Assembly (NCBI GenBank): GCA_903813345.2
Contig: CAIIXF020000012.1
Location: 2,399,318-2,463,317, forward strand
Reading direction: 5' to 3'
Source of the DNA: Owenia fusiformis
Lineage: Eukaryota; Annelida; Polychaeta; Sabellida; Oweniidae
DNA: 64,000 nt
Below the pieces are notes generated by a model, which was given only the letters and a program-made list of their open reading frames with translations, ran no database searches and had not been told where the DNA came from. Positions 15,501-41,759 of this stretch are shown one piece after another. The position numbers were made by a program, and so were the translations under genes. The stretch's first letter is position 1. Each line of letters opens with the position of its first letter.

Positions 15501-18500
15501 GGAAACAAGTCAAACGTCCTTTATAACATTCGGCAATCAAACTCACTCAGTCTGTAACACCTCCCCCTCCCCCTCTTCCCATTCCCCAAAGCATTACCTT
15601 GAAAACTACACTATTGTACTCTACCCTTTCAGTCTGGACAACCCCATCCCCCTCTATTACCCAAAGCATTTAACTCAAAAATCTAAAAAATGACACTTCT
15701 TTCTTATACTCAATGAGAGATATATCCAGTACAAAGTATGTTTAATCTAAACAAGGAACTTCAAGTGCAGTCACTTATCTGATATTGTTGTTTAAGTTTA
15801 TGACCTACCCTGATAAAGCACAACTAATAGCCCTCCCTTACTTAAAGTTGCATTGATAAATCATAACTAATAGTTTTTTCCCTTGTTTAAAGTTGCAGTG
15901 ATAAATCATAACTAATAGTTTTTTTCCTTTGCTTAAAGTTGCATTGATAAATCATTACTAATAGTTTTTTTCCTTTGCTTAAAGTTACAGTAACTATTAC
16001 TTCAATATTCTCAACTCAGACGTCCACGCAGTAGAACAGCAAGAGGAGATTAAGGGATGTTATTTTGCAAGATACTTATAGGCATTTGGTATTATTTGGA
16101 TTTGAAACAATATGTGTACTGTGTTTCAATGCCAGGTTTATTAACAACAAAAAATTGGAATCATTATTCAATACTCTCACCTTGGATAATTGATATTTAT
16201 AGAAAAAGTAGAAACATTAGTTGCATATATGAAGAGGTTGGAATCTAAAAACCTTTTTGAGGTTGGCCAAATAACGAATTGGATGAACAGCATATCTTTC
16301 CCATTTCAATAAAAAAGTCTTGTTTCTAAAAATGTTCAAAGTAGATTTTATATGCTTCATATATTTTCCAGTGCCACCTGGGAAATAATCCATCTTAGAG
16401 AGAGGTTAAGGTTGTGTCCCCTGGGAAATATAGAAGTTGGATTTTAAGTGACTCCTTTATTTAACAAATCGTAAACTGGAGTCATCTTACCGTGGCACTG
16501 TACTTTTCCTAATTTTCATCCATTAAATTACTAAAATCCTAAAATGTTACTGTGAAAAATCTTTAAAACCTACAATATGCACTAGAAACTTTGAAAATCT
16601 TGAAATATCACGCCAAAAAAAATTCATTTGAAAAACTCCTAGTGTGGGCATTTCTAAGTATATATATTTTCCAGCTGCACTATATAAAACATTGACTTAT
16701 CGTATAAATGCCATGGCCATTCATCAGCTCTGTGATTGTTATCTAGTTTTAGATGCATAAAATTGATATGCCACCGATGTAATAAATGGCAGGTGGTGAC
16801 ATTTTGCATGTTAATGCCTTTTATGATATTTCGTTTTCAGTGATCTCTCTATGATCTCCTCACCATGCTAAATTCAAATTTTCCCTGTTTTGGTCAAAAT
16901 ATCTATTCAATCCCTTTACAAGCAAGAAAAACTAAATAGATTCTTTCAAGCTTGTCACCAAGCTGCCGCCGTATATACAAACACTAATCTGGCTTTGATA
17001 GACAACTGTATTTCACTATTTTGACAGGGTGACAACAGATTTTTTACATGGTATCTTATAATTTTCAACAGAGGGTTGTTCTCAATCATCCTTGGTCCAA
17101 GGGTTTCCACTTTTAGCATAAATGAATAAAGAAGCATACAGAAGGATGTTTCTCAATAGCCTTGATCTATTTTAGCTGGTGCCTCGTCAGATTGTTCAAT
17201 CCCATGTGGCAGGATTTGTTAGGTACCACAAAGCTGCAATGCAGGGATTAAAAAATAATCAATTATAATCAATGGCCTTCAAGTACACTAATAAGGAAAT
17301 CCTCTGAACTATATGTGCTTGTGTTTAAAATACAATTCTGCATTGGAATGTAATGTTACTAAACAGGAAATCGTTAATTAGAACTGTAAGTTTCCGGAGT
17401 TTGGTTACTAGTTACAAAGTCTCATCCTAGATCATGATAAGGCATATTCTGCCTTAACATATTCTGGTATTGACATAACAGCTATCTTTTCTCCTGTTCC
17501 GTTTCCAGTACAGGCTCCTCAAAGGATATTTCATTCTTCAAATATGTTTGTATGTGGTGGTATACCTTTGAGGTCATTTTGGTCTCACCTGAGCATCAGA
17601 TAAGTGTACAATCATTTGTTGTGCTCAGAGTCTAGTTAGTACTGCTATATGAAAGGAACCAGGGTACTTATTTTCAAGAAAAGCTCTTGTGTCATCTTTG
17701 TTATCATTTTTATGTCCCCACCACATAGTGTGGGGCCATATTGTCGGCCTAGGCGCGTCCGTCTGTCTGTCTGTCCGTCTGTCTGTCCGTCTGTCCGTAC
17801 GTCCGGCAGTTTTCTCCAAAACCACTACAGATATCACCTTCAAATTTTCAGGGATAACTTATGAGTGCATACAGATGTGGATGAAAAAAAATTAACTCGA
17901 TACCTACTTCCTGTCTGCCATTTTGAAGTCAAATGCTAAAATCCTTGTCTGCAAACTTTAAGAAAAACGGCTTCACAGTTGCTTTTAAAACTTTAATATC
18001 TTGTTCAGCTCACTTCATTCTAGATCTGATTAGGTTTTGGACCTGTTAGCTCAGTCATGTCAGCCATTTTGAATGTTTTAAGAAAAGTTAGCGCACGATA
18101 ATACTTTGTATCATATTGAATGGTGTTTTTCAGTTTTCATACTTAAACTATTTCTTAGCTTTATAAATAATTTCAGGTGTACTTTGTTGTAAAAGCCTAT
18201 GTTATTGTTAACAGTAGTTATATGTGATAATTTTGTAAAAAGAAATCAGCAAAAACTCATAATCACTTTTTTATTGTCGGCCATTTTGGATTTTTCCGTC
18301 CAAAAATCTTGTCTATAAAGTCTTGTCTACGCGTTTTCATGTCAACCGTTTGGTAGATCAATTTCAAATTTTCAGGGATGATTCTCAGTATGAAAATCTA
18401 GATCTGATTAGTTTTTGGGCATTCTGGATAAATGTCAAGGCAGCCATTTGGGATTTTCCGTCTTAAAATCTTGCCCGTAAAGTCTTGTCTAAGCGGTTTT

Positions 18501-21500
18501 AGGTGAACTGTTTGGTAGATCAATTTCAAATTTTCAGGGATGATTCTTAGTATGGAAATCTAGATCTGATTAGTTTTTGGGCATTCTGGATAAATGTCAA
18601 GGCAGCCATTTTGGATTTTCTGTCCTCAAATCTTGTCTGTAAAGTCTTGTTTACATGTTTTTGGGTTAACTGTGTGACGGATCAATTTCAAATTTTCAGG
18701 GGTGGTTCTTAGTATGAAAATCTAGAACTGACTAATTTTTTGGCATTCTGGGTAAATTTTAAGGCAGCCATTTTGGATTTTCCGTCCTCAAATTGTGTCA
18801 GTAAAGTCTTGTCTACTCATTTTTAGGATAACCATTTGATGGGATCACCAATATGTGGGGACATTTTGTACACATTTGTGTTCTTGTTATCATTTGTTGT
18901 GCTCAGAGTCTAGTTAGTACTGCTATATGAAAGGAACCAGGGTACTTATTTTCAAGAAAAGCACTTGTGTCATCTTTGCTATCATTTTTATATATCATTT
19001 GTTGTGCTCAGAGTCTAGTTAGTACTGCTATATGAAAGGTACTAGGGTACATCTATTCAAGAAAAATGTGGACTTATCAGATCTATTCTTAACATCAAAA
19101 AATTCACATATGGTCAATGTGGTATATTACATTGGGATTGTTCTTTGAATACATGAATGTTTTTTAGAGCTCTTGTATCATCTTTCTTATCATTTTTAAA
19201 ACAGATTTTTCATAAAAAAATTCTCAGTTATTTTATTCATTGCGAACTGTCTAAAAAGAATTAACAATTTTACAGACCTCTGTTGTTAAGAAAGCTTGTT
19301 GTTAGTAATGACATTGTGATTTACTTAAACATAAGCTTTTAATTCCTGGAAATTGACATGTCAGGTTAGGTTGACCTCATCATTCACATATATTGTTATA
19401 TAGGGAGGAGTAGTCTAATGCCTAGTAACAAGAAAACAATTATTGGGCCAGTGGAAATGAATGGAGGGCTCATTTCTAGGGCTTACTATATAAACTGTGT
19501 GGATTTGTGTTTTATTTTGTACCATGGGAAATGGGAATGCATAACACTAGTAATTGAAAATGCAAGCTTTTATTTTTATATTTAATTGACATAACATTGA
19601 CATTGATGATCCAGTTTTACCAACCTGATCCTTCACATCATTGTACATTTTTACATTTGCAGCAATTTAATAATGCAATGAAGTATTATTACTATTTAGA
19701 ACCAGCACATTTAATGTACATTGACTAGTCGGTCCTTCCACCTGACATTAAATCTGTTATTTATTAGCACTGCGGTCTCCTGTTAATTAATAGTGTTTTA
19801 TGACATCCAGTCTATATTACCTGCACAGTTTACATTATCCAGCCCGCTGGCGGCGGATCCAGAAGCTAGCAAGGGGATGGGCCCCACATTTCAAACATAA
19901 AAAAAATTTGCGCTCATGCGCGGAAAAAAATCCAAAACTGAGACCTGCTCCAAAGATCTGTTTAGGTTTATAGGCATGCTGGGTAATTTGTATTTCAAGT
20001 ATGATATTTATCATTGTCACTTGTCACTTCGTCTCGTTCTAATACGGAATTCTCAAGCAGAATACATACTGTATTGCACTTCAAATCATATCTTGTCATA
20101 CATTTCATATTTTGAGTTAGGTCATATCATCAAATTACATCTAAGCAGTTTCTTGTCACAAATGTCTGTATAGATTTGGGTGGAACGATTCCCCATAGCT
20201 TAAAATAATTATCCCATCGAACGAAGTTCGGAGGGATATAGGGAACGCCTCCGTCCGTCCGTACGTACGTACGTACGTACGTACGTCCGTCCGGGCAATA
20301 ACTCAAATACCGTTGGCCCGATTTTGTTCATATTTTGTACACATATACCCTATGGGGGAAGAAGTTCTGCTCGAAAGCTGATTTTCAAAATGGCCGCTCA
20401 TTTCAAAATGGCGGCCATTTTAGTGCCGAATTTACAGTAATTTAGGTGCAATATGTAAAACTGTAATAGCAATATGTTTTAGATGTAAAAAAGATTATAT
20501 AGGACATTAATAAAGCTAGAAATGTAGATATTAAAGAAGCACATGGCAGCCATCTTGAAAAATGGCGGTCTTTACTCGTTATTTTGCGATTTTTGCTTTA
20601 ACTCGAAAAGTAGTGGAGCGATTTTGTTCATATTTGGTATGTGAATACTATAAACATTGCACACTGTCTAAAGACACTTTTAGTAGAAGGCGGCCATTTT
20701 GAAAAATGGCCGCCATTTTAACGTATTTTACTATAACTCGAAAAATAGTGAAGCGATTTTGTTCATATTTGGTATGTGAATACTGTAAGCATGGCACACT
20801 GTCTAATGACACTTTTGGTAGAAGGCGGTCATTTTTCAAAATGGCCACCATTTTAATGTATTTTACTATAGCTCGAAAAGTAGTGGAGCGATTTTGTTAA
20901 TATTTGGTATGTGAATACTATAAGCTTGGAAGACTGTCTAATGGCACTTTTGGTAGAAGGTGGCCATTTTGAAAAATGGCTGCCATTTTAACGTATTTTA
21001 CTATAACTTGAAAAGTAGTGGAGCGATTCTGTTCATATTTGGTATGTGAATACTATAAGGATGGCACATGGTCTAATGACACTTTTGGTAGAAGGCGGCC
21101 ATTTTGAAAAATGGCTGCCATTTTTGCTATATCCTTTGTTTGTAAAAATGCCATCCATGGTTGTTCGATGGGATTCGCTACGCTTTGGCGTTGCCGTTGT
21201 TCTGGTTCAGATTGCAAGTACATATAACTACAATTATCTAACTTTACAAGTTATTCACCATCTACACTATACATATTGACAAATTATATAATTGTGTTTA
21301 ATATCACACTGACTGACACAATGATTGTGTTTTAATGTAATAATTGTTTCATATTAGATCGATAGAGTTCTTTTTGCATGTCATATTAGATGAAAATTCT
21401 TGCATATTGTGTGTGTGATTGATATATAGTCTAAACTGAACCCAACTGGGACCAACCAAAAGTGTCCAGATTAGCCGATGTTCACATTTCTTTAAATATG

Positions 21501-33500: not shown

Positions 33501-34559
33501 AGAGGAGGGCATATCCCAGAATTCTTAGGTGAAACTAGCCATGAAAAAAGCAACCTCTTTATATGGAGATTGGTTCATCTAAGAATTCTGGGATATTCCC
33601 CTCTCTTAATATACTACTAACTTGACCCAGAATCCCTTTGAAACACTAATGATACAATATTCTTGAAAAGAAATAACCCCTAAAATACATAGAAATTCAG
33701 TAAAATTTGTGATATGTTTATGTGCAAGTGGAGCTATGAATAAAATAGCAATTAAGATCTTCAAAAGAGAGATTTGATTAATGTGGTACTCCATTAAAGA
33801 TTAGAGAATCAATTCAATAACATTTGAAAGTCAAATAGAGAAGCCACAATTCTGTGAGTTCCTTTGTTTTTAATTTACTAATTCTACTAAAATATAGTTA
33901 AGATATAAAGATAACTCAAAATCCGATGTATGTTTTCATTGAGTTTGCATGTTCGTCATGCATCTGAAGAAAACCAGCCATATTTAAATAAAAAACTTTG
34001 AAGATTTGCTTACTTCACTTTGGCAAAATTGTGCCTGGTCATTGCATATTTATTGTATTTTGGGTGTATTGCCCATTGATTGAATTAAAAGAAATTGGGC
34101 AATTTAAAAAACTGGCAGATATGCATGTTAAGAATTCAAGAAATAGACTATTAACATTTTGTTAAACATTCAACCCACTACTGAAACCACTAAATATCTT
34201 CAATAGTATTATCATAATTACTAATTCAAACCATTGTGCACAGGATATGGGATGATTTACCAAGATAAATTATTAGCATGAGCAAATATATGGTATGTTC
34301 ATATTTATGAATCTTGTGTAATTTAATCATAGAAAAGAAAAGTCAAAGAAAATCATCAGGACTGGTTACTTTGTGTAATGTACAGAGTGGGCCAAAAGAT
34401 TTGTGTAATTTCTATGTAAATTTTGTGTTATTTTCACTGTCAGTTTTGTGTAATTTCAGTCAATTTTATATGTTATTTCAGTGTCAATTTTTTATAATTT
34501 TAGTTCACACACAGGCACCTCAACAGATGGCTCCACAGCAGTATCAACACAATCAATGA
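3452..34559 (+). CDS. ATXN2: Ataxin-2 (complete, 21 coding exons, 901 residues)
   Basis: Joined coding exons: 3452-3501, 11740-11779, 12159-12212, 14892-14963, 23814-23970, 24630-24760, 25374-25462, 25833-26042, 26326-26471, 26990-27118, 27384-27466, 27814-27963, 28259-28332, 28817-28892, 29512-29607, 30058-30130, 30252-30382, 30961-31144, 31642-32223, 32486-32608, 34504-34559. All junctions are GT-AG with matching phases; the total is 2706 nt. Domains: LSm fold about residues 31-124; LsmAD about 125-260, including NGWDPNEMF and YDSSLAQY; conserved YVPPHLR at 269; PAM2 core STLNPNAKEF at 467-476; polyQ tracts near 401 and 605; Gln/Pro/His-rich tail. Ataxin-2 is a cytoplasmic RNA-granule protein that binds poly(A)-binding protein through PAM2 and affects mRNA stability and translation. 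It is shorter than vertebrate ATXN2 and lacks an N-terminal polyQ. The start is the only ATG whose exon phase fits exon 2; upstream UTR exons are possible. Confidence 0.95.
3607..4314. mobile_element. Foldback element II, MULE-like, with 9-bp target duplication
   Basis: About 215-bp terminal inverted repeats (left starts TTATCGCATCCTAC, right ends GTAGGATACGATAA) are highly similar and separated by a short loop near 4070-4125. A 9-bp direct repeat GGTTACTGT flanks both sides (3598-3606 and 4315-4323). Long TIRs plus a 9-bp duplication fit Mutator-like elements. No transposase; its left arm is split by the MITE at 3631-3900. Confidence 0.8.
3631..3900. mobile_element. 270-bp MITE nested in foldback II, TA target
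   Basis: Ends are inverted copies (GGGCGAAGGGGTGTAA..GTCGAC), followed by internal GGGGTAA-TTCGACA repeats. TA flanks both ends (3629-3630 and 3901-3902). The opposite arm of the host element preserves the empty site (TTTAGATTGTGG), confirming insertion at TA. Tc1/mariner-type non-autonomous element by duplication type. Confidence 0.85.
4324..4925. mobile_element. Foldback element III with terminal sub-hairpins
   Basis: About 300-bp inverted arms meet in a centre near 4600-4640. Strong blocks are TAATAGTGAC, ATTAAGTCGATCAGCG, AAGTATTGGAGCGCTGA and CGATCAAGACTTGTAA with their mirrors. The left terminus also folds on itself (CGAGAGCCAT..ATGGCTCTCG), as in foldback I. It abuts the target duplication of element II. 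Confidence 0.75.
4950..5110. mobile_element. Old, diverged copy of the 3631-3900 MITE
   Basis: Reads in the same order as the younger copy: AAGGAGTCTAATGTGGACAT, then ATCCATGCGAGAA, ATGGCTTCC.CCTAGATC and GAAGTTAC. It has many substitutions and deletions. Confidence 0.6.
5114..5311 (-). pseudogene. Decayed hAT transposase BED zinc-finger fragment
   Basis: The minus-strand frame includes SHSWLFGFPTMDAVPIVEKT followed by ICRLCKVVL. This is close to the N-terminal BED finger of hAT transposases, where an aromatic-rich W..FGFP is followed by a CxxC pair and then a TSNL..H..H segment. The final His pair is not preserved, so the finger is broken. No other transposase domain is seen nearby. Confidence 0.45.
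5374..5508. repeat. Inverted repeat next to the BED fragment
   Basis: CAGGGAGGCATTGTC..CATGTAG at left is mirrored by CTACATGAAGACATTGCC.CCCTG at right, with CCTCAGAG / CTCAGAGG-like ends; arms are about 45 bp. Open frames across it on both strands are treated as accidental. Confidence 0.5.
5509..6066. other. Ataxin-2 intron 1, no feature seen
   Basis: AT-rich intronic sequence with no recognisable gene or repeat boundary. Confidence 0.4.
6067..6440 (+). mobile_element. HINE-like element, family T, short copy
   Basis: Starts TATGTCACTACCAGAAGTGG with the local hairpin and has GTTTGG/GTTGG short repeats. It ends with CATGTTAATGTCTTG, matching the 3' end of the large copy at 37851-40390. The internal 136-bp tandem units are absent. 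Confidence 0.65.
6441..9670. other. Ataxin-2 intron 1, mostly unannotated
   Basis: AT-rich intron without recognisable genes. A 9-C run lies near 9282. Open frames are short and unsupported. Confidence 0.4.
9675..9851. mobile_element. Pogo-like MITE, copy 1
   Basis: Ends CAGCAAAACCTG and CAGGTTTCACTG are inverted. The interior carries GTGTTCGGATTAG and GTGTTCACATTGAG phrases shared with the copies at 10847, 21428, 25163 and 51542. Length 177 bp; TA at the right, TG at the left. Confidence 0.7.
10847..11030. mobile_element. Pogo-like MITE, 184-bp copy
   Basis: CAGTAAAACATG at left and the mirrored TTTCTACTG at right, with TA at both flanks (10845-10846 and 11031-11032). Exactly the length of the inverted copy at 51542-51725. 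No coding capacity. Confidence 0.75.
11740..11779 (+). CDS. ATXN2: Ataxin-2 coding exon 2
   Basis: A 40-nt exon after TATTTTCAG, before GTAAGT. It completes an Arg codon and encodes GGKMRGNVDKGIF, the linker just ahead of the LSm fold. Confidence 0.85.
12159..12212 (+). CDS. ATXN2: Ataxin-2 coding exon 3 (LSm start)
   Basis: 18 codons in phase 0 encoding TEGVYNNPRLTHSASALI. EGVYNN is a hallmark of ataxin-2 at the beginning of its LSm domain. Acceptor TGTTGCAG, donor GTAAGT. Confidence 0.95.
12236..12510. repeat. ~70-bp direct duplication flanking a HINE-like 3' fragment
   Basis: GGCACCTTACACATAAAT..TCTTAGATGCTA occurs at about 12245-12301 and again at about 12431-12498. Between them (12357-12420) is the 3' end of family A (TTCGATGGGATTCGCTACA..TTGCCGTTGTTCT), as in 20211-21203. 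Confidence 0.65.
12814..12917. repeat. Foldback hairpin with ~42-bp arms
   Basis: An inner perfect 18-bp stem (GATATCAAATATCAACAC with its complement at 12875-12892) encloses TCATTCGCTTCGCTCACTC. Outer arms GTGATATCATTTTATCGCC and GGCGATAAAAATGATATCAC extend it. Further GTGATATC copies at 12640-12690 suggest a larger decayed element from about 12600. Confidence 0.75.
14281..14362. mobile_element. Pogo-like MITE, 5' half
   Basis: AGTAAAACCTGTCTAATCTG through GTGTTCATATTTCAAGG, cut off where a family T element begins. A complementary 3' half lies at 15097-15174, on the other side of exon 4. Confidence 0.65.
14363..14480 (+). mobile_element. HINE-like element, family T, minimal copy
   Basis: GTCACCACcagaaGTGGTGAC hairpin at the 5' side, CTGTAACA phrases, distal GGTGGTGACATTTTG, then the small GCAT..ATGC hairpin and CCTTGTT end. 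About 118 bp, without tandem units; it interrupts a MITE. Confidence 0.7.
14596..14796. repeat. ~200-bp interspersed repeat, copy 1
   Basis: Begins TGATCTCCCCAGCATTAAAG, has repeated GCACCCAC(C/T)TGA phrases and ends near TCCTGTGAAC. Nearly the same element, in the same orientation, is at 26551-26755. Family unknown. Confidence 0.7.
14892..14963 (+). CDS. ATXN2: Ataxin-2 coding exon 4 (LSm core)
   Basis: 24 codons in phase 0 encoding GCNVQVQVKNGTVYEGIF then RTFSPK. VKNGTxYEGIF is the conserved Sm1-like strand pair of ataxin-2. Acceptor TTTTCCAG, donor GTATGT. Confidence 0.97.
15097..15174. mobile_element. Pogo-like MITE, 3' half
   Basis: GTGTTCACATTGAGG, GATTAGAGAGGTGTTC and ATACAGGTTTTCTGTA correspond to the 3' half missing from 14281-14362. 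Confidence 0.6.
15802..15990. repeat. ~46-bp tandem repeat, four copies
   Basis: Unit contains AAAGTTGCATTGATAAATCA and ACTAATAGTTTTTTTCC; starts are spaced 45-46 bp. Intronic and non-coding. Confidence 0.8.
15991..17610. other. Ataxin-2 intron 4, mostly unannotated
   Basis: AT-rich intron. The only recognisable piece is a family T 3' fragment at 16783-16824 (GGTGGTGACATTTTGCATG then TTAATGCC). Confidence 0.5.
17611..19090. repeat. ~100-bp direct repeat, three copies, first interrupted by a HINE-like element
   Basis: ATCATTTGTTGTGCTCAGAG followed by TCTAGTTAGTACTGCTATAT begins near 17611, 18889 and 18992. The family C element (17711-18888) sits at the junction of copies 1 and 2. Confidence 0.75.
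17711..18888 (+). mobile_element. HINE-like element, family C, full copy
   Basis: 5' ATGTCCCCAC is followed by a local partner GTGGGG (17830s excluded; at 17730-17735), then GTCCGTCTGTCT-type short repeats. After these come about four 162-bp units, each with CAGCCATTTTGGATTTTCCG (starts near 18279, 18441, 18603, 18765). The distal partner GTGGGGACAT is at 18855-18864, with a small ACACA/TGTGT hairpin and a TTCTTGTT end. The pieces fit a non-autonomous Helentron (HINE). No protein encoded. Confidence 0.7.
19845..19935. repeat. Partial GGCGGATCC-type repeat
   Basis: CGCTGGCGGCGGATCCAGAA resembles the end of the element at 50975-51185. Only one end is present. Confidence 0.35.
20211..21203 (+). 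mobile_element. HINE-like element, family A, full copy
   Basis: ATCCCATCGAAC (20211-20222) has a local partner (20226-20237) and a perfect distal partner GTTCGATGGGAT (21163-21174). Between them lie CGTCCGTCCGTACGTACG short repeats and 135-bp tandem units (GAAGG starts at 20686, 20821, 20956 and 21091). Each unit contains a hairpin GGCGGCCATTTT / AAAATGGCCGCC. The 3' end has ACGC-TTTG-GCGT and GTTGTTCT. Two 3' fragments are at 12357 and 56114. Confidence 0.7.
21428..22602. repeat. Pogo-like MITE whose 3' end has expanded into a 58-bp tandem array
   Basis: The MITE begins near 21428 (CTAAACTGAACCCAACTGGG). From about 21550 its 3' end plus flank repeats every 58 bp: GTGTTCGGATTAGAGAGGTG, TTCAGATATACAGGTTTCAC, TATATATTATATTTAGAG. 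About 17 units alternate between long and short (CACTGGTTATATTTAG) forms. Remnants continue at 22855-22895 and 23773-23802, so the array once ran up to the exon 5 acceptor. Confidence 0.85.
22603..22854. mobile_element. 252-bp TIR MITE inserted in the 58-bp array
   Basis: GAGCCTGGCCATAGGAAAA at left and its mirror TTTTCCCGTGGCCTGGCTC at right; the similarity extends through GGTCTTATCACA. The flanking ATTT on both sides may be a 4-bp target duplication. Confidence 0.75.
23016..23678 (-). mobile_element. hAT-like element (inner), 663 bp, with 8-bp target duplication
   Basis: TIRs TAGAGGTGTCACGGT and ACCGTGACACCTCTA. Flanks ATTCGCAA (23008-23015) and ATTCGCCA (23679-23686) match at 7 of 8 positions, the hAT duplication length. 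It still carries a transposase BED finger on the minus strand. The catalytic region is missing, so it cannot move by itself. Confidence 0.75.
23024..23340 (-). pseudogene. hAT transposase N-terminal BED zinc-finger fragment
   Basis: The open minus frame reads EPASKSKKSAVWKYFGTP, then ISQGKRVGEITPCRLCEMPI. VWKYFG and the CxxC pair are typical of the BED finger of hAT transposases. After PITFAADALHS the pattern is lost, with no HxxxH and no RNase-H-like core. An upstream start would need a frameshift. The plus-strand open frame 23067-23990 is an accidental antisense reading that runs into ataxin-2 exon 5. Confidence 0.6.
23814..23970 (+). CDS. ATXN2: Ataxin-2 coding exon 5 (LSm end)
   Basis: 52 codons plus 1 nt, from MEVVLEMAHVVEAG to LNVDLDYAIK. 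It matches the ataxin-2 segment that ends the LSm domain (compare FELAVDAVHRK and NVDFNYATKD in vertebrates). The acceptor TATTTTCCAG is only about 35 bp from repeat sequence. Confidence 0.93.
23964..24050 (+). repeat. 27-bp tandem triplication of the exon 5 donor
   Basis: ATAAAAG|GTATGTTTGAATTG occurs three times in a row at 27-bp spacing (third copy GTACGT). Using the second donor would add an in-frame TGA after six full codons, so the first donor is taken as the coding one. Confidence 0.85.
24630..24760 (+). CDS. ATXN2: Ataxin-2 coding exon 6 (LsmAD start)
   Basis: Completes an Asp codon, then TFTDTAISGKHNLNGELEKE, LQPWEADAGG and an acidic stretch ending SSGQ. Conserved FTDxAI and PW motifs. 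Acceptor TTGTAG, donor GTATGT. Confidence 0.95.
25163..25303. mobile_element. Pogo-like MITE, diverged copy
   Basis: AAAACCTGTCTAATCTGAAC through GAGGTGTTCAGATAACAAG and TTTACTG; interior shortened. Confidence 0.65.
25374..25462 (+). CDS. ATXN2: Ataxin-2 coding exon 7 (LsmAD)
   Basis: 29 codons plus 2 nt: NGWDPNEMFRVNNEKFQVE then SSYDSSLAQY. This is the most conserved signature of the family. Acceptor TTTCAG, donor GTAAGT. Confidence 0.98.
25833..26042 (+). CDS. ATXN2: Ataxin-2 coding exon 8
   Basis: Encodes TPLDRKNTAEYKERERNAAR, LAAEIERDESSKHRLNLENG and DEEMLYSAVIRDGENTEGG: the helical end of LsmAD followed by a Gly-rich linker. The donor is GTATGT after GGAAA, so the longer open reading into the intron is not used. 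Confidence 0.95.
26326..26471 (+). CDS. ATXN2: Ataxin-2 coding exon 9
   Basis: Encodes YVPPHLRKSVAHGRAIPRVP and a Ser/Pro-rich linker to NGGV. KY(V/I)PP.. is the conserved post-LsmAD motif. Confidence 0.93.
26551..26755. repeat. ~200-bp interspersed repeat, copy 2
   Basis: TGATCTCCCCAGCATTAAAG start and repeated GCACCCACTTGA phrases, as at 14596-14796; same orientation, clearly diverged. Confidence 0.7.
26990..27118 (+). CDS. ATXN2: Ataxin-2 coding exon 10
   Basis: Completes Asp, then SNIEEKLGNSPEKVAAAAAN, a Lys/Asn/Asp-rich linker, ending DTSPDINKK. A similar upstream acceptor at 26947 would give an early stop and is rejected. Confidence 0.88.
27384..27466 (+). CDS. ATXN2: Ataxin-2 coding exon 11
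   Basis: Encodes ARNQQIQELRSFQETFKLSD then TKSEREKK. It corresponds to the conserved helical segment (RKQIDDLKKFKNDFRLQ in vertebrate ataxin-2). Confidence 0.93.
27814..27963 (+). CDS. ATXN2: Ataxin-2 coding exon 12 (polyQ tract 1)
   Basis: 50 codons: TKEKETPLKEDPQI, a run of ten Gln encoded by mixed CAA/CAG, then Gln-rich sequence. The mixed codons make it less prone to slippage than pure CAG. Acceptor TTTTCAG, donor GTATAA, so the donor is slightly weak. Confidence 0.9.
28259..28332 (+). CDS. ATXN2: Ataxin-2 coding exon 13
   Basis: Acidic, Gln-rich linker SHTGEELRQEDTQRQQDSEK then TEEVE, leading into PAM2. Donor GTAAGT. Confidence 0.88.
28704..28816 (+). repeat. Tandem duplication of the exon 14 acceptor region
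   Basis: TTCAGGTGTATTTCTATATT, then TCAGGTCTG.AACT.CATGTA and ATTGTTATATTTT, repeat with a 56-bp period. They create AG|G acceptors at 28708, 28727, 28764 and 28783 before the coding one at 28816. The site at 28783 is exactly 33 nt upstream and keeps the frame. Confidence 0.85.
28817..28892 (+). CDS. ATXN2: Ataxin-2 coding exon 14 (PAM2 motif)
   Basis: Encodes SVKHSTLNPNAKEFVFNPTA then KPFIP. LNPNAKEF is the canonical PAM2 peptide, which docks on the MLLE domain of poly(A)-binding protein; Leu and Phe are the key contacts in known complexes. Donor GTAAGT. Confidence 0.98.
29127..29153. repeat. 11-bp-stem hairpin
   Basis: AATCCCAACCA and TGGTTGGGATT close a 5-nt loop, in the intron before exon 15. 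Not followed by a T-run; function unknown. Confidence 0.6.
29512..29607 (+). CDS. ATXN2: Ataxin-2 coding exon 15
   Basis: 32 codons in phase 0: KQEYNPVPTPPRPQTQSPV and a Pro/Gln-rich end, like the Pro-rich segment after PAM2 in other ataxin-2 proteins. Confidence 0.9.
29641..29975 (+). mobile_element. Unclassified ~335-bp element, copy 1
   Basis: Starts ATGAGGTTCAGGATATTGGG and ends GGCAGAT-type phrases (ATATCTGCCCACTGATGAAA). An inverted copy is at 49640-50695 and shares both ends. Repeated ATATCTGCC motifs; no coding capacity. Confidence 0.7.
30058..30130 (+). CDS. ATXN2: Ataxin-2 coding exon 16
   Basis: 24 codons plus 1 nt: PMNMNYIIQPQQQPQQQRF then PRPGK. Acceptor TTTTGCAG, donor GTAAGA. 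Confidence 0.88.
30252..30382 (+). CDS. ATXN2: Ataxin-2 coding exon 17
   Basis: Encodes TAVVSVNPTSNFSQNPANVT and a Gly/Gln/Pro stretch to PTILYNM. Acceptor TTTGTAG, donor GTATGT. Confidence 0.88.
30550..30695 (-). repeat. tRNA-derived SINE
   Basis: On the minus strand it has a B-box-like GGTTTGATTCCCGG after a tRNA-like head (TAGTCCTCCAGCTAATGGG). The tail GGCTCTTCCAAGGAGGGG is shared with 2565-2765. Confidence 0.6.
30770..30900. repeat. Cluster of TATGGTACC-type words
   Basis: ATGGTACC or close variants occur repeatedly on both strands within 130 bp just before the exon 18 acceptor. Possibly a decayed foldback element. Confidence 0.5.
30961..31144 (+). CDS. ATXN2: Ataxin-2 coding exon 18 (polyQ tract 2)
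   Basis: 61 codons plus 1 nt: GSNVRMPLAAQLMPQFV, 13 consecutive Gln (mixed CAA/CAG), SNGES, further Gln-rich sequence, PTQYY. Acceptor TTTTAG, donor GTAAGT. Confidence 0.92.
31206..31315 (+). mobile_element. HINE-like element, family T, fragment
   Basis: CATATTGTTATAGTCTCCAT, GTTTGG short repeats, CATCTGTAACAAATGG and a decayed distal motif (AGGTTATGAAATTTT). The 5' hairpin is missing. Confidence 0.55.
31560..31641 (+). repeat. 82-bp tandem duplication across the exon 19 acceptor
   Basis: TTTGTGTTTCAG|TCCCACAG and the first ~40 nt of exon 19 occur twice, 82 bp apart. Using the first acceptor (exon from 31560) shifts the frame and hits a TAA shortly after the second copy. The second (31642) keeps the frame into exon 20. 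Confidence 0.9.
31642..32223 (+). CDS. ATXN2: Ataxin-2 coding exon 19 (large Pro/Gln/His-rich exon)
   Basis: 193 full codons, from IPQGGIPTHVQMHPQPAHLP to PQQVNMQ. It is dominated by Gln, Pro and His, like the disordered C-terminal half of the family (for example APSPVQHHQ in vertebrates; SPSPVHVQP here). Intrinsically disordered and likely to support RNA-granule assembly (inference). Donor GTAACC is weak. Confidence 0.92.
32486..32608 (+). CDS. ATXN2: Ataxin-2 coding exon 20
   Basis: Encodes GHSQATMAPPTQHTMVAHPQ then GIMTSTASNVHPQMHYSIHQ. Resembles the C-terminal HVQAHVQSG..P.HP.. part of ataxin-2. Acceptor TCTATAG, donor GTATGC. Confidence 0.88.
32640..33412 (+). repeat. 52-bp tandem array in ataxin-2 intron 20
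   Basis: Unit TTACATATTTAAATTTCAG, TTTATATTATAAACTTT, CACCCAATTTAGGGTG. From about 32815 the copies are almost identical (about 11); the first ones (32640-32815) are older and uneven. Each unit holds a near-palindrome CACCC..GGGTG. Confidence 0.92.
33500..33608. mobile_element. 109-bp hairpin MITE with 8-bp target duplication
   Basis: AGAGGAGGG..ATATCCCAG and AATTCTTAGGTGAA are mirrored at the right end (CTAAGAATTCTGGGATAT, CCCCTCTCT); arms are about 33 bp. ATATACTA flanks both sides (33492-33499 and 33609-33616), suggesting a hAT-type MITE. Confidence 0.8.
34504..34559 (+). CDS. ATXN2: Ataxin-2 last coding exon (21) and stop
   Basis: Completes Val, then HTQAPQQMAPQQYQHNQ and TGA at 34557-34559. 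Acceptor ATTTTAG. The end of this exon is the first unit of the 50-bp array. Confidence 0.85.
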
Positions 34560-35097
34560 ATCTAGTCTAGTCTAGCTACATATTAGGTAAATATCAACAC
34601 AATCAATGAATCTAGTCTCGTCAAGCTACATATCGGGTAAATATCAACACAATCAACAACAATGAATCTAGTCTAGTCTAGCTACATATTAGGTAAATAT
34701 CAACACAATCAATGAATCTAGTCTAGTCTAGCTACATATTAGGTAAATATCAACACAATCAATGAATCTAGTCTAGTCTAGCTACATATTAGGTAAATAT
34801 CAACACAATCAATGAATCTAGTCTAGTCTAGCTACATATTAGGTAAATATCAACACAATCAATGAATCTAGTCTAGTCTAGCTACATATTAGGTAAATAT
34901 CAACACAATCAATGAATCTAGTCTAGTCTAGCTACATATTAGGTAAATATCAACACAATCAATGAATCTAGTCTCGTCTAGCTACATATTAGGTAAATAT
35001 CAACACAATCAATGAATCTAGTCTCGTCTAGCTACATATTAGGTAAATATCAACACAATCAATGAATTTAATCTAGTCTAGCTACATATTAGGTGAA
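34542..35097 (+). repeat. 50-bp tandem array starting inside the stop exon
   Basis: TATCAACACAATCAATGA, ATCTAGTCTAGTCTAGCTAC, ATATTAGGTAAA repeats 11 times, starting at 34542, 34592, 34642, 34698 and then every 50 bp to 35048. The first unit encodes the last five residues and stop; the rest would be 3' UTR. Confidence 0.92.
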
Positions 35098-35900
35098 TAA
35101 GATGTTTCTAAGTTGATAAACGGTTATTGAGAAACTATTTCAACAAGGCATGTATATCTAAGTTGATATTTCCATTTTAGGAAATAATTTTAATATACCA
35201 TGTTTATACCGTTGGAACGTTGGGTACTAAGAAACTTTTTTAACCAATCAAGTACTTTTAGGTTGATGTTTCCATATAAGGAAACAATTTTAACCAATCA
35301 TGTTCTCATGTAATTGAAATTTGCATATTATGAAATAATTTTAACCAATCATGCTTCTAGGAAGACATTTTGGTATTTAAAAACTATTTCAATCAATCAT
35401 ATTCTTTCAGATATACCTGCACAAGCTGATGATTGGCCACTCCAGTACATTGATATTTGAGGAAACCTAGAAACTGTTAAAAATAAAAGTTGAATTGTTT
35501 TACTGTGAACAGAAACACTATGAATCAAACAAGAGGATTAAGAAACTGTCAAGAGGATCAAGAAACTGTCAAGAGGATTAAGAAACTGAAGAAACTGTCA
35601 AGAGGAAATGAATAGGAATTTTAATTTAAGATATATGATTGTAATCATACGAAGGAATATGGTATTTAAACAAAAGAAATATGAATGATGAAAGAAAATT
35701 ACAAAAATGGACCATAGCGTGAATCGAATGTAAATTGGCTAAACGTGGATATGTATTCTGAAAACTGGTTTTTGTTGGTGATTAATTTATACAATTTTGT
35801 AGTTTTGCTATTTTGTTACAATGGTACAATGTCGTGTGGAATATATGTGATTTTTTAAAATTTGAGTTTATTAATAAAATTTTGTGACCTCTTAGCTGAT
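34560..35900 (+). other. ATXN2: Probable ataxin-2 3' UTR
   Basis: Contains the 50-bp array, then an older ~60-bp degenerate tandem (TTTTAACCAATCATG phrases, 35095-35410). Candidate polyadenylation signals are AATAAA at 35482-35487 and 35873-35878. The true end is unknown without transcripts. Confidence 0.55.
35873..35878 (+). terminator. Candidate polyadenylation signal
   Basis: AATAAA followed by TTTTGTGACCTCTT, a fair downstream GT/T-rich context; the better of the two candidates. Confidence 0.5.
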
Positions 35901-36374
35901 ATGGTATTCTAATTTGAAAGGTGGGTTCTCAATAATTGAAACATAATCTGAAATATCGTGAATAAGAGTAATAATTGAAACATAATCTGAAATATGGAGA
36001 AGAGTAAGGGGTAGTTGAGATAACATTACAACATCGCTATCCCTATTTTGCAAAACAAAGACACAGTTTCTAGAAGTATTATTACAATAAGATATCATTG
36101 GGAATGAAACAGATCATGTACTTGATTGGGCTTTTCAGGCCTGTGTAGCTTAAATTATTTTTGTAAGGCAAGTCTTAGTATTTAGTGTTAGTCTCTTTAC
36201 ATGTTTGTATGTCATATATCTTCCTTCATACCTTCCTTTTGGTGTCAGGATTATGAAAATTAAGCAAGCCACGATAGTTCAAGTTAGAAAATATGGTTTT
36301 GTCCACTGTTCCGATTTTAGAATTTCTAAGTTTTATATGTTCGTCATTATGGCTTCTCTGAGCATGGCATACTG

Positions 36375-36465
36375 TACATTGTACAGGGTGTTACATAAAA
36401 TACTGCACATTGTACAGGGTGTTACATAATATACCATACATTACACAGGGTGTAACATAAAATCT
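36375..36465. repeat. ~36-bp tandem repeat, three copies
   Basis: ACATTGTACAGGGTGTTACA repeats with slight changes (third copy ACATTACACAGGGTGTAACA). Confidence 0.75.
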
Positions 36466-37850
36466 GTTGAGGTATTGGAGATACAAACATGTTCTTAGTT
36501 ATGTAGATAAATTGAATGCAAATGCATTGACCCTTGAGTCCTATTAAACAATGGCCTGTTAAGGCCTTTAACATCACTTGAATCTTCCATACTAAATGTA
36601 ACTCATTTATACTATCAAGACCTCATCATTCTATTAGTTTGCTGGAACTATAATCAGCTCAACGGGAGAGTTACTTTTGAACATGTGTAGAATCTAAGAT
36701 AAGGTACCACATGCAAACTGATGGTGTGTTGGGGTTTTGATCGTATCCATGGTAATGCTAACAGCTCCATGGCAACTCTAAGGACTAGAAAATGTTATTG
36801 TTTTTGATCAGAGATTGGTAAGAAGCCATTGCATTTGCACTTCATTTCATTAGTTCAGAAGAGCTTCCGTTAAATTTTGACCTGAAGGGTTATTTTGACC
36901 TTGAGCTATTTTGTCCATTGGGGTTTTTGACCTTGGATTATTTTTGAATTCTGACAGTTTGCCTTGTTTAGCATGGAAAATTCTAAATTTTTCAAACAAA
37001 TGAGATCATAATCTAAGATGGCCGCTTCTGCTTTGAATATCAATCAAGGTCGAAGTTACCCTTGAGCAAACTAGCCCATGGACGAAATAATCCCATAGGT
37101 CAAAGTTCAACTGAAGACCCTTAACACGCAGGCATCTCTACATGGAGCTAGGGTTCTAGTTGTCTATCTAAGAGAATGAAATTTAACTATAAAAAATTCT
37201 GGAAAAAGCAATATGAGAATATTTCTTTAGAAATTCAAAGTTGGGAGGAAATCATAAAATTGGGATAACATTTCTTGTGGTGACTTCTTATTAATTTAAT
37301 ATTTATTTGCAATGAGTATGTACTAACCCTATTTACATGTAGATATCTTGTAAGTCTAGTGTTATTTATTATATTGTATATTGTTTAATATACCAGGATG
37401 TCTTTGTATAATGGGACAGGATATGACAGTTGTTTTTATGTGAATAAGGTGTGGGGATGTATAACCTATCCTAAATTTATTTCTAAGAAAACCCAACATT
37501 TTCAGTCATCAATACATACAGTGTTGCCATGGAAATAACAATTTCAAAACTGGCATTTTCAAAACTTGGATATCTGTTATGATCAGGAAAAATAGATAGG
37601 ACTAAGTAGTCATGTTCTGGTATACAAAGTCATTCTGGTCAAAGGGTTGGGGTGAAAGAATTTCAAAATGCCATTATTGTGCCGGTAAATACCATACAAT
37701 GCATCTCCGTATAGACTAGTACTGTAATGTAAATGATTAATTGCACATTCATGTGTGACTTGGAAAATTTGCGTTTTCATCAGTTGAAAAGGGAATCGTG
37801 AATTTTTGGCATCACATGTGGGTACAATGATTATCGATGAAAATCATTTT
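36466..37850. other. Intergenic, nothing recognised
   Basis: AT-rich sequence between ataxin-2 and a HINE-like element. No exon with family resemblance was seen. Confidence 0.4.
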
Positions 37851-40390
37851 TATGTCACCACCAAAAGTGGTGACATATTGTTATGGTCTCCGTTTTTTTT
37901 GCGACGGCGGTTGGCGTCCGGCGTCCGGCGGTTGGTGGTTGGCGTCCGGCGGTTGGCGTCTGTAACAATTTCTTACAACTTCCTATAACTTAACAAATAC
38001 TGTTTAGACTGACTTCAATTTTTTTCTAAATTATCTACATGTTCTCAGAAGTTCAAATCTGACTTTAGATTTGACATTTGACCTTCAATGACCTTCTCAA
38101 GGTCAAAAAGGTCTTTTTTCAACTTGCTTCACATTGACTAAATTTTTTTTCAAAATCATCTACATGTTCTCAGAAATTCAAATCTGACTTTAGATTTGAC
38201 ATTTGACCTTCAAATCTGACTTTAGATTTGACATTTGACCTTCAATGACCTTCTCAAGGTCAAAAAAGGTCAAAAAGGTCTGTTTTCAACTTGCTTCAAA
38301 TTGACTAAATTTTTTTTTCAAAATCATCTACGTGTTCTCAGAAATTCAAATCTGACTTTAGATTTGACTTTAGATTTGACATTTGACCTTCAATGACCTT
38401 CTCAAAGTCAAAAAAGGTCAAAAAGGTCTGTTTTCAACTTGCTTCAAATTGACTAAATTTTTTTTTCAAAATCATCTACGTGTTCTCAGAAATTCAAATC
38501 TGACTTTAGATTTGACATTTGACCTTCAATGACCTTCTCAAAGTCAAAAAAGGTCAAAAAGGTCTTTTTTCAACTTGCTTCAAATTGACTAAATTTTTTT
38601 TTCAAAATCTTCTACATGTTCTCAGAAATTCAAATCTGACTTTAGATTTGACATTTGACCTTCAATGACCTTCTCAAGGTCAAAAAAGGTCAAAAAGGTC
38701 TGTTTTCAACTTGCTTCAAATTGACTAAAAAATTTTTTTAAAATCATCTACGTGTTCTCAGAAATTCAAATCTGACTTTAGATTTGACTCAAGATTTGAC
38801 ATTTGACCTTCAATGACCTTCTCAAAGTCAAAAAAGGTCAAAAAGGTCTTTTTTCAACTTGCTTCAAATTGACTAATTTTTTTTTCAAAATCATCTACAT
38901 GTTCTCAGAAATTCAAATCTGACTTAAGATTTGACATTTGACCTTCAATGACCTTCTCAATGTCAAAAAAGGTCAAAAAGGTCTTTTTTCATCTTGCTTC
39001 AAATTAACTAAATTTTTTTTTCAAAATCATCTACATGTTCTCAGAAATTCAAATATGACTTTAGATTTGACATTTGACCTTCAATGACCTTCTCAAGGTC
39101 AAAAAAGGTCAAAAAGGTCTTTTTTCAACTTGCTTCAAATTGACTAATTTTTTTTTCAAAATCATCTACATGTTCTCAGAAATTCAAATCTGACTTAAGA
39201 TTTGACATTTGACCTTTAATGACCTTCTCAAGGTCAAAAAAGGTCAAAAAGGTCTGATTTCAACTTGCTTCAAATTGACTAAAAATTTTTTTTAAAATCA
39301 TCTACGTGTTCTCAGAAATTCAAATCTGACTTTAGATTTGACTCAAGATTTGACATTTGACCTTCAATGACCTTCTCAAAGTCAAAAAAGGTCAAAAAGG
39401 TCTTTTTTCAACTTGCTTCAAATTGACTAATTTTTTTTTCAAAATCATCTACATGTTCTCAGAAATTCAAATCTGACTTAAGATTTGACATTTGACCTTC
39501 AATGACCTTCTCAATGTCAAAAAAGGTCAAAAAGGTCTTTTTTCATCTTGCTTCAAATTAACTAAATTTTTTTTTCAAAATCATCTACATGTTCTCAGAA
39601 ATTCAAATATGACTTTAGATTTGACATTTGACCTTCAATGACCTTCTCAAGGTCAAAAAAGGTCAAAAAGGTCTTTTTTCAACTTGCTTCAAATTGACTA
39701 ATTTTTTTTTCAAAATCATCTACATGTTCTCAGAAATTCAAATCTGACTTAAGATTTGACATTTGACCTTTAATGACCTTCTCAAGGTCAAAAAAGGTCA
39801 AAAAGGTCTGATTTCAACTTGCTTTAAATTGACCAAATTTTTTTTTCAAAATCATCTACATCTTTTCAGAAGTTCAAATTTGACTTTTACAAGTTCTCAG
39901 AAGTTCAAATCTGACTTTAGATTTGACCTTTGACCTTCAATGACCTTCTCAAGGTCAAAAAGGTCTTTTTTGAACTTGCTTCAAATTGACTAATTTTTTT
40001 TTCAAAATCATCTACATGTTCTCAGAAGTTCAAATCTGACTTTAGATTTGACATTTGACCTTCAATGACCTTTTCAAGGTCAAAAAGCTCTTTTTTCAAC
40101 TTGCTTCAAATTTACTTAATTTTTTTTTCAAAATCATCTACATGTTCTCAGAAGTTCAAATCTGACTTTACATTTGACATTTGACCTTCAATGACCTTCT
40201 CAATGTCAAAAAAAGTCAAAGAGGTATTTTTTCAACTTGCTTCAAATTGACGAATTTTTTTTTCAAAATCATCTTCATGTTCTAAGAAGTTCAAATCAAA
40301 CCTTCTTAAGGTCAAAAGGTATTTTCCAACTTGCTTTAAATTGACCAAATTGTTTTAGGTGGTGACATTTTGTCATGTTAATGCCTTGTT
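37851..40390 (+). mobile_element. HINE-like element, family T, full copy with 136-bp array
   Basis: ATGTCACCAC (37852-37861) pairs with the adjacent GTGGTGACAT (37867-37876) or the distal one (40359-40368). Then come GGCGTCCGGCGGTTGG short repeats and, from about 38010 to 40345, some 17 units of about 136 bp. The units contain TTCAACTTGCTTCAAATTGA, AAATCATCTACATGTTCTCA, TTTGACATTTGACCTTCAAT and CTCAAGGTCAAAAAAGGTCA. The 3' end has CATGTTAATGCC and CTTGTT. No protein encoded. Confidence 0.8.
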
Positions 40391-41755
40391 GTAAAATACA
40401 AAAGCATTGAAAATTGAATTTTCATGTTAAATTTTGTGTGACTTGGTGAATGGTGTATCATTGCATAATGCATAGTAATGTATCACATGATTCAATGCAT
40501 CGACATGTTACGAAATGCATTTATATGATAAACAATGCATTTAAATGTTCAACCATGCATTAACGTGTTCAACAATGTTGGATGTTAAAAATGTCTACAG
40601 CCCCTATTATCCATATTGAAGCCATGCAGACTTTTTAAAAAAACGTTTGCTCCTTTATGATAGCATGGACTGTAGTCTGGTATATGGATATAAAACTCCA
40701 AATAGATTCTAAGGAATTTGCTGAAAAGGATTTTAGTACAAAAATTATGTACCCTTTGTAAGGAAGTGACCATAGTTATGGTAGAAAATTGATATGGTTT
40801 TATAAAGTTAAGGCCACAAAATGGAATCTGTTTCACATGACGGTGAAAAAATTAAAAATACTGTGAAACAAATTCAATTTTTGGCCTTACGTTGATACTG
40901 TTGGTTTGTATTGTACATTGAAGAAATTACAACTTTTTAGAGTCAATTTTATGAATTTTTAGAATGGGGGAAATTAATGTTGCTAAGGTTACAAAGCTAC
41001 GTAACCTTGGAAATGAAAACCTTAAGACTTCTCTAATTGGATTACGGTAAACGTGAATATGAAAGAAAATGTTCAGTTATTTATAGTACAAAGTCTTCAT
41101 ATAGTAATGATATAGACCAAAAATATTTTTTCAATTTTATACAAATGGTAAAGATGTGGTTCATGTATTGTGGTATCTTCCTTTAAAATTTCAATATTAT
41201 ACAATATTTCACAAGTCACTTATAACATAACGTAATCAAATTCCTTGCATTTATATACCAACACTGTGCTACAATGACTGAAATAGTGTCATATTTTGTG
41301 ATTTTGAATACAAAAGCTCAGCTACTAAATATAAAAAGGTTCAACAATCATATTTTTAGGGTCAGAATAAATCATTGTTTAGCAAAAATGTTTGATTTTA
41401 TTGTTGAAATATTAGTTCACAACCAACTGAGGTCTTTACAGAATAAAAAATAAGAAAAACCCTACATGATGTTTTGTTCATTTCTTCACACTTTGAATAT
41501 GCTTGTTGCATTGAGATTATTGAGATCATGGTTGTAGCCAGCATGAGGCAGGTGAAGCAACTGCCTCACTAAAATTATTAGTGTAGGCATTTTCTCAATT
41601 GACACCATGAAAAGGAAATCTAATGACAAGATCTTATTGTTTCTGACTGTTTGCCTCACCTATTTAAAGGACCCGTTACAGATTCTATTACCATCTCCCC
41701 TTGGAAAAGAAATTCACCTGAGATTTCAAAATGAATGTACTGGTTTAATGATGAT
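40391..41755. other. Intergenic, nothing recognised
   Basis: AT-rich. A small run of ATGCATT words occurs at 40470-40570. A possible MITE edge (GTAGCCAGCATGAGGCAGG) is near 41535. Confidence 0.4.
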
Positions 41756-41759
41756 GATG

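What the first reader, a model, noticed from the sequence alone, without database searches (positions are those of the whole stretch)
17711..40390. Three sequence-unrelated repeat families share one Helentron/HINE-like blueprint
Seen at 17711-18888 (C), 20211-21203 (A) and 37851-40390 (T). Each has a 10-12-bp 5' motif, an adjacent local complement, a short-period repeat rich in GTCC/GTCT, 135-162-bp tandem units, a distal copy of the complement, a small hairpin (ACACA/TGTGT, ACGC/GCGT, GCAT/ATGC) and a TTGTT-like end. There is no evident target duplication. Subterminal inverted repeats, a 3' hairpin and internal tandem units match published descriptions of non-autonomous Helentrons (HINE/DINE-1, pearl). 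The 5' motif can pair locally or with the far end, which suggests a structural switch (inference).
Basis: partly seen in the sequence, partly recalled or inferred. Interest (0 to 1): 0.75.

Follow-up and report, generated by a model that had tools for sequence, protein, structure and literature searches.

The report
Helentron-derived repeats and their partners
Three mobile-DNA families in this genome share one rolling-circle layout already known from flies and oysters; for two of them an enzyme-coding element with the same ends was found in the same genome.

Summary
C (17710-18887), A (20209-21207) and T (37850-40389) are high-copy families with sharp ends: 923 C, 1,446 A and 1,306-1,604 T exact end matches in a 498-Mb genome. 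The 5' motif, its distal complement and the tandem units are real; the local complement is perfect in T, imperfect in C and A. C and T are not fully unrelated: their ends are homologous.

The Helentron reading is confirmed for C and T. Elements of 11.6-12.2 kb carry a Rep-helicase-endonuclease frame between the same 5' and 3' ends: T at three loci (a shared 3.2-kb stretch is 99.2-99.8% identical; one locus read end to end), C at one. The T-partner Rep has the published Helentron signature. Empty sites (one insertion per family) show clean insertion at T-runs; a TT duplication cannot be excluded for A.

A has the same layout but a Helitron-type CTRR 3' end (21 of 21) and no confirmed partner.

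The layout is not new (DINE-1/HINE, Cg_HINE). New here are the partner link, left unresolved in oyster, and tandem-stacked T 5' ends: 164 junctions genome-wide against 0 exact matches to the reciprocal junction that self-insertion predicts.

The parts
17710..18887 (+). family C non-autonomous element (HINE), whole
   Evidence: ends fixed by 21 aligned copies; listed long matches 91-95% identical
17712..17721 (+). C 5' subTIR ATGTCCCCAC
   Evidence: exact in 20 of 21 copies
17730..17739 (+). C local imperfect complement GTGGGGCCAT
17757..17803 (+). C GTCC/GTCT microsatellite
18280..18827 (+). C tandem units, 162 bp x 3.4
18855..18864 (+). C 3' subTIR GTGGGGACAT
   Evidence: exact in 19 of 21 copies
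18870..18887 (+). C 3' hairpin ACAC(ATTT)GTGT and end TCTTGT
   Evidence: hairpin no better than shuffles
20209..21207 (+). family A non-autonomous rolling-circle-like element, whole
   Evidence: 21 aligned copies
20211..20222 (+). A 5' subTIR ATCCCATCGAAC
   Evidence: exact in 18 of 21 copies
20226..20237 (+). A local imperfect complement GTTCGGAGGGAT
20252..20290 (+). A GTCC/CGTA microsatellite
20591..21124 (+). A tandem units, 135 bp x 4.0
21163..21174 (+). A 3' subTIR GTTCGATGGGAT
   Evidence: exact in 17 of 21 copies
21180..21207 (+). A 3' hairpin ACGC(TTTG)GCGT and end TTGTTCTGG|TT (CTRR-type)
37850..40389 (+). family T non-autonomous element (HINE), whole
   Evidence: 10 aligned copies
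37852..37862 (+). T 5' subTIR ATGTCACCACC
   Evidence: exact in 10 of 10 copies
37867..37876 (+). T local complement GTGGTGACAT
37905..37960 (+). T GGCGTCC-type microsatellite
38365..40297 (+). T tandem units, 136 bp x 14 (271-bp higher-order form)
40358..40368 (+). T 3' subTIR GGTGGTGACAT
   Evidence: exact in 10 of 10 copies
40374..40389 (+). T 3' mini-hairpin CAT(GTTA)ATG and end CCTTGT
   Evidence: hairpin no better than shuffles
14358..14481 (+). array-less 124-bp element with T-type 5' and 3' ends

Best explanation
C and T are HINEs: non-autonomous, rolling-circle Helentron derivatives. They are moved in trans by Rep-helicase-endonuclease proteins encoded by longer Helentrons of the same genome that carry the same 5' end, the same satellite-like array next to it, and the same 3' end. 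Shown: shared ends, coding capacity, clean insertion into T-runs, high copy number. Inferred from the known pathway of Helitrons and Helentrons: nicking at the 5' end (subTIR/hairpin), copying of one strand, stopping at the 3' subTIR/palindrome, and joining into a T-run opened by the endonuclease. A most likely works the same way by its anatomy; its CTRR 3' end and A-before-TT target suggest mixed Helitron/Helentron ends, and its partner is unknown.
For: T: three loci (C10, C6, C11) have the T 5' end, T units next to it, Rep and PIF1 matches in one open frame of 2,424-2,576 aa, and the T 3' end, 11.6-12.1 kb apart. C10 was read end to end; there Pfam gives Rep, PIF1 and a below-cut-off endonuclease match. 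Its Rep motif VEFQNRGSPHIH preceded by FYR fits the published Helentron signature (PMC4067079). A fourth, partial copy at C47 has the T 3' end at the same 4.7-kb spacing from Rep. C: at C1 the C 5' end plus 1,096 bp of C body (91%) precede a 2,053-aa frame with Rep and PIF1 matches; its C-terminal part matches endonuclease, and a C 3' end closes the element. Empty sites: C (three places examined), T (inside A elements), A (one place). Copy counts: reversed-pattern controls 0.
Against: C rests on one coding locus, of which the Rep stretch was located but not read; a 171-aa frame just upstream may be a broken N-terminal part. The inner parts of the C6 and C11 T elements were not all fetched. The 3' palindromes of C and T are no more stable than shuffles. 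No A partner was confirmed: nine further Rep or Rep-fragment loci show no A 3' end in the stretches fetched, though these do not all cover both sides. A ends in CTRR (21 of 21) and has A before TT in 17 of 21, which are Helitron-like features. Identity between window HINEs and the coding copies is about 90% (T, 5' side), 89% (T, 153 bp near the 3' end) and 91% (C), below the >95% and 98% of the published pairs, so these window copies are not recent derivatives of the coding copies found.
Confidence: 0.93

Rival explanations
1. They are MITEs (or foldback-like elements) of a DDE transposase; the 10-12-bp motifs are true TIRs and the TTs are a short duplication.
For: Short inverted repeats at both ends; in A a TT flanks both ends and the empty site has one TT.
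Against: Elements with the T and C ends encode Rep, PIF1 and endonuclease; in C 8 of 21 right flanks and in T 2 of 10 have only one T after the end, so no TT duplication; the two ends are built differently. No search for DDE transposases was made.
Confidence: 0.03
2. A is a canonical Helitron derivative, not a HINE: 3' palindrome about 10 nt before CTRR, insertion next to A before TT.
For: CTGGTT in 19 and CTAGTT in 2 of 21 copies, A before TT in 17 of 21; hairpin ACGC/GCGT 10 nt upstream of CTGG.
Against: No 5' TC end; the 5' subTIR, its local complement, GTCC microsatellite, tandem units and 3' subTIR are the DINE-1/HINE layout (PMC4067079, PMC7492417); both Rep proteins whose motif I read (2 of 58 Rep matches) are of Helentron type.
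Confidence: 0.2
3. The shared layout is convergence: satellite arrays flanked by unrelated short inverted repeats, spread by recombination rather than transposition.
For: Arrays of three different sequences; array length varies between copies.
Against: Sharp ends with different flanks in 52 aligned copies, except that the left flank of L048 is another T end; clean empty sites; one fixed order of parts; coding partners.
Confidence: 0.01

Closest known systems
HINE / DINE-1 and their Helentrons (Thomas, Vadnagara and Pritham 2014, PMC4067079)
   Same: 5' subTIR, IR, microsatellite, central repeats, 3' subTIR and palindrome; TT insertion with a variable number of T; autonomous partner with Rep-helicase-endonuclease and shared ends
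   Different: Here the coding T and C elements themselves carry the long satellite-like array beside the 5' end; A has a CTRR 3' end
Cg_HINE elements of Pacific oyster (Vojvoda Zeljko et al. 2020, PMC7492417)
   Same: Nearly identical blueprint, including GTCY-type microsatellite and mostly 140-180-bp central units; some elements unrelated in sequence but alike in layout
   Different: In oyster no autonomous element could be related to the Cg_HINEs; here two families have one
FoHeli Helitrons with multiple 5' termini (PMC5148889)
   Same: Short 5' terminal pieces stacked before one element with a single 3' end
   Different: There the authors suggest self-insertion; here the reciprocal junction has 0 exact matches against 164 stacks, and this is a Helentron/HINE family
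pearl / CvA elements of bivalves
   Same: Central tandem repeats; pearl is said to have been re-filed as a non-autonomous Helentron (passage in PMC7492417)
   Different: Sequences not compared here

Membership tests
Helentron/HINE | 10-15-bp subTIRs at both ends | tested here: met
   C, A, T: distal complement 10/12/11 bp, at most 1 of 20,000 shuffles; kept across copies
Helentron/HINE | 3' palindrome before the end | tested here: inconclusive
   Present in all three, but folding no better than shuffles for C and T, modest for A
Helentron/HINE (C and T) | Insertion in TT/T-runs without target duplication | tested here: met
   a 1-bp T duplication cannot be excluded
Helentron/HINE (A) | Insertion in TT without target duplication | tested here: inconclusive
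   Target TT; a TT duplication cannot be told from element-owned TT
Helentron/HINE (C and T) | Coding partner with the same ends and Rep-PIF1-endonuclease frame | tested here: met
   T (three loci, one read end to end) and C (one locus):
Helentron/HINE (A) | Coding partner with the same ends | tested here: inconclusive
   None confirmed; an inverted A 5' end lies about 2.5 kb beyond the endonuclease in both group-3 copies fetched, no A 3' end found in the stretches fetched
Helentron/HINE | Rep motif 2 with RGSPH and a preceding F/Y-x-R | tested here: met
   T Helentron FYRVEFQNRGSPHIH; C partner Rep not read
Canonical Helitron | 5' TC, 3' CTRR, insertion between A and T | tested here: not met
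   C and T end CTTG|T; A has CTRR in 21 of 21 but no 5' TC
Helentron/HINE | Transposition by a rolling-circle intermediate | not testable with these tools
   Needs circle/junction PCR or a mobility assay

The most novel reading that the evidence does not exclude
The T 5' end multiplies itself in place: the 45-53-bp module (subTIR, complement, T-run) is re-copied in tandem through its own T-run during Rep-driven copying or one-ended joining, giving elements with 2-4 stacked start sites and one stop site. Stacked starts may be kept because they raise the chance of being nicked. This would be origin amplification in a transposon, not self-insertion.
Probability: 0.25. Interest if true: 0.6.

Novelty: new member of a known kind. 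Interest (0 to 1): 0.42.

Why it matters
The oyster study could not tie array-carrying HINEs to any autonomous Helentron (PMC7492417, passage). Here two array-carrying families are tied to coding elements that carry the array themselves, which suggests that a HINE can inherit its satellite-like array by deletion of the coding part. The T family, with three coding loci 99.2-99.8% identical over a shared 3.2-kb stretch and over 1,300 exact ends, is a good system in which to test how rolling-circle elements spread satellite DNA and how their start sites become duplicated.

Tried and rejected
A partner for A: nine further Rep or Rep-fragment loci were examined by stretches of about 4-5.5 kb on one or both sides: C6:27117644, C2:24601785 and seven. 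None showed an A 3' end; for C2 the 3' stretch ended before the helicase, so its 3' end was not reached. In group 3 (C5:30807401, C4:27748878) an A 5' end lies inverted about 2.5 kb past the endonuclease in both copies. A reversed reading frame is known in D. ananassae (PMC4067079), but 6 kb further upstream of the C5 copy held no A 3' end. I leave it unresolved: an old A insertion or a decayed partner.

Group 1 Rep frames (frames up to 3,377 aa; an OTU match in the one read by Pfam) have none of the three ends in the stretches fetched.

Self-insertion as the source of stacked 5' ends: the reciprocal junction (T 3' end followed by the rest of the outer element) has 0 exact matches genome-wide. 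The pattern would miss variants such as the CTGACGG form of the coding copies. Slippage that needs long host T-runs gets no clear support: 8 of 12 stacked and 5 of 9 unstacked T copies have four or more T before ATGTC. Neither is excluded.

The joined-flank search held 12 of 52 insertions, chosen by eye; only 40 of 3,134 candidates were scored. Two gave full-length empty sites (L018 of C, 39 of the 40 scored places; L030 of A, one place); a third (L014 of C) gave one weak match across the joint (78% over 90 letters), not followed up. The other nine are untested rather than negative.

Organism: not identified; no taxon is claimed. Repbase and supplementary files were not searched. A text search for six end motifs found one paper holding two of them, on influenza assays, and no transposon paper; it cannot see figures or supplements.
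Full report
OBSERVATION. The three elements were read directly. Tandem Repeats Finder gives the 162-, 135- and 136/271-bp arrays and the microsatellites. The genome G000 (498 Mb, window at C12:2399318-2463317) holds many copies: of 2,754 (C), 3,871 (A) and 4,385 (T) first-look candidates 40 were scored per family, the main matches being 88-96% identical. Exact end matches over the whole genome: C 3' end 923, A 3' end 1,446, T 5' end 1,306, T 3' end 1,604; the reversed-pattern control gave 0 each time.

ENDS. I fetched 20 C, 20 A and 10 T copies with flanks. With the window copies, 21 C, 21 A and 10 T could be aligned at both ends; one T copy, L043, gave no 3' end in the stretch fetched. Flanks differ up to TT|ATGTC (C, T) and TT|ATCCC (A) on the left; on the right they diverge after CTTGT (C, T) or CTGGTT/CTAGTT (A). 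The left flank of L048 is itself a T 5' end (see below). The 5' subTIR, local complement and 3' subTIR are all exact in 18 of 21 C, 15 of 21 A and 10 of 10 T. C and T ends are homologous, with one compensated pair change; computed cross-pairing C x T is -10.3 kcal/mol against -13.4 and -14.8 for the matched C and T pairs, and -3.9 to -5.4 for pairs with A.

TARGETS. Empty sites: (a) the C11 coding T copy lies inside an A element, and uninterrupted A copies align across the joint (L034, shown; L036, L037 and L039 at 86-88%); (b) the C copy L018 lies in a repeat whose uninterrupted copies match the joined flanks at 99%; (c) the A copy L030 has an empty paralogue at C13. At the joint of (a) the element adds two T and of (b) three T; no other bases are gained or lost there. 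In (c) one TT is on each side and one in the empty site, so a TT duplication and element-owned TT cannot be told apart.

CODING PARTNERS. A Pfam Rep search gave 58 matches, a PIF1 search 62. Group 2 (C10:10910081-, C6:5179499+, C11:29204960+) has T 3' ends at C10:10905386, C6:5184716, C11:29210188 and T 5' ends at C10:10916996, C6:5172598, C11:29198330, with T units next to the 5' end. C10 was fetched whole; in C6 and C11 inner stretches were not fetched, but Rep and PIF1 match there in one open frame (2,508 and 2,424 aa). Over a shared 3.2-kb 3' stretch, part coding and part not, the three are 99.2-99.8% identical, and their flanks differ. In C10 Pfam finds DUF6570, Rep, PIF1 and a below-cut-off endonuclease match. 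The Rep motif FYRVEFQNRGSPHIH fits the diagnostic residues of Helentrons given in PMC4067079 (first of three parts of the results read). For C, the frame at C1 (Rep at 4667175, PIF1 at 4669140; 2,053 aa without stop) ends in an endonuclease match. It is preceded by a C 5' end and 1,096 bp of C body at 91% from C1:4661043, and followed by a C 3' end at C1:4673247 that is not attached to C units. An independent C HINE upstream would have its own 3' end; none was found in that 7-kb stretch.

FAMILY A. It has every part of the layout but ends CTGG (19) or CTAG (2) before TT, with A before the left TT in 17 of 21. PMC4067079 (passages) gives 5' TC, 3' CTRR, a palindrome about 11 bp before the 3' end and A-T insertion as canonical Helitron features, and describes a Helentron-like protein in an element with Helitron structure in Phytophthora. 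A may be such a mix. This is inference; no partner is known.

STACKED 5' ENDS. One of ten aligned T HINEs (L048) and the C11 Helentron begin with a partial T 5' end (46-49 bp up to its T-run) directly joined to a full one. The pattern GGTCTCCGTTT N0-10 ATGTCACCACCA has 164 matches, against 1,306 exact T 5' ends by another pattern, or roughly one stack per eight ends. In ten fetched stacked loci, nine show 2 to 4 exact units and the tenth (L082) two diverged units; each has a single exact T 3' end in the stretch. After it, nine of ten show nothing of the outer element within the next 400 letters (190 available in L079); the match in L083 belongs to a second T 5' end 0.3 kb on. Of the 49 junctions listed on contigs C1-C3, 41 are pure T-runs of 4-10 T, 22 of them of 7-8 T, the length of the intact internal run (10 of 10 copies); the other eight carry extra letters such as ATT, GTT or GTGATT. 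FoHeli Helitrons show the same pattern, for which the authors suggest self-insertion followed by transposition from the outer 5' to the first 3' end (PMC5148889, passages). That model predicts parent loci with a 3' end followed by the rest of the outer element; the exact pattern has 0 matches. So I prefer duplication within the element, through the T-run, or one-ended joining; which of these, and whether during transposition, is not shown. The C and A samples had no stacks (0 of 21 each).

MECHANISM. Shown: shared ends, coding partner, clean T-run insertion. Inferred from the Helitron/Helentron pathway: Rep nicks at the 5' end, the helicase unwinds, one strand is copied out until the 3' subTIR and palindrome, and the endonuclease opens a T-run for joining. 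The local 5' hairpin and the 5'-3' subTIR duplex exclude each other and the latter is computed stronger in all three, so a switch between a nicking form and an end-joined form is possible, not shown.

KNOWN AND NEW. Layout, TT preference and mostly 140-180-bp arrays are published for oyster Cg_HINEs (PMC7492417, results section read) and, in layout, for DINE-1/HINE (PMC4067079, parts read and passages in 51, 72). The oyster authors could not relate any autonomous Helentron to Cg_HINEs (passage). Paper searches. Verdict: new members of a known kind, with a partner link and an unusual end-stacking.

Noticed in passing
window 6066, 14358-14481, 16793 (T-type ends); 12380, 56154 (A 3' ends): Further T-type and A-type ends on the + strand of the window; 14358-14481 is a complete 124-bp element without an array.
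   Followed up: partly
window 49795-50429: Two 15-bp-period arrays next to each other whose units are reverse complements (CTTCCCATTTCGCCC and AGGGGCGAAATGGGA), a large inverted array.
   Followed up: no
window 41753-49017: A 27-bp satellite of about 268 copies starts 1.4 kb after the T element.
   Followed up: no
G000 contigs C13, C505, C515 and other small contigs: Of 24 Rep-matching open frames of 2,900 aa or more, 18 lie outside the twelve large contigs C1-C12.
   Followed up: no
L056:3539-3654 and L071:3263-3302: An A 5' end in inverted orientation about 2.5 kb beyond the endonuclease of both group-3 Helentron copies; insertion or decayed A partner with a reversed frame.
   Followed up: partly
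window 17613-19030: By eye, the host sequence around the C element is itself a repeated unit of roughly 100 bp (CATTTGTTGTGCTCAGAGTCTAG...), so C sits inside a short tandem repeat.
   Followed up: no
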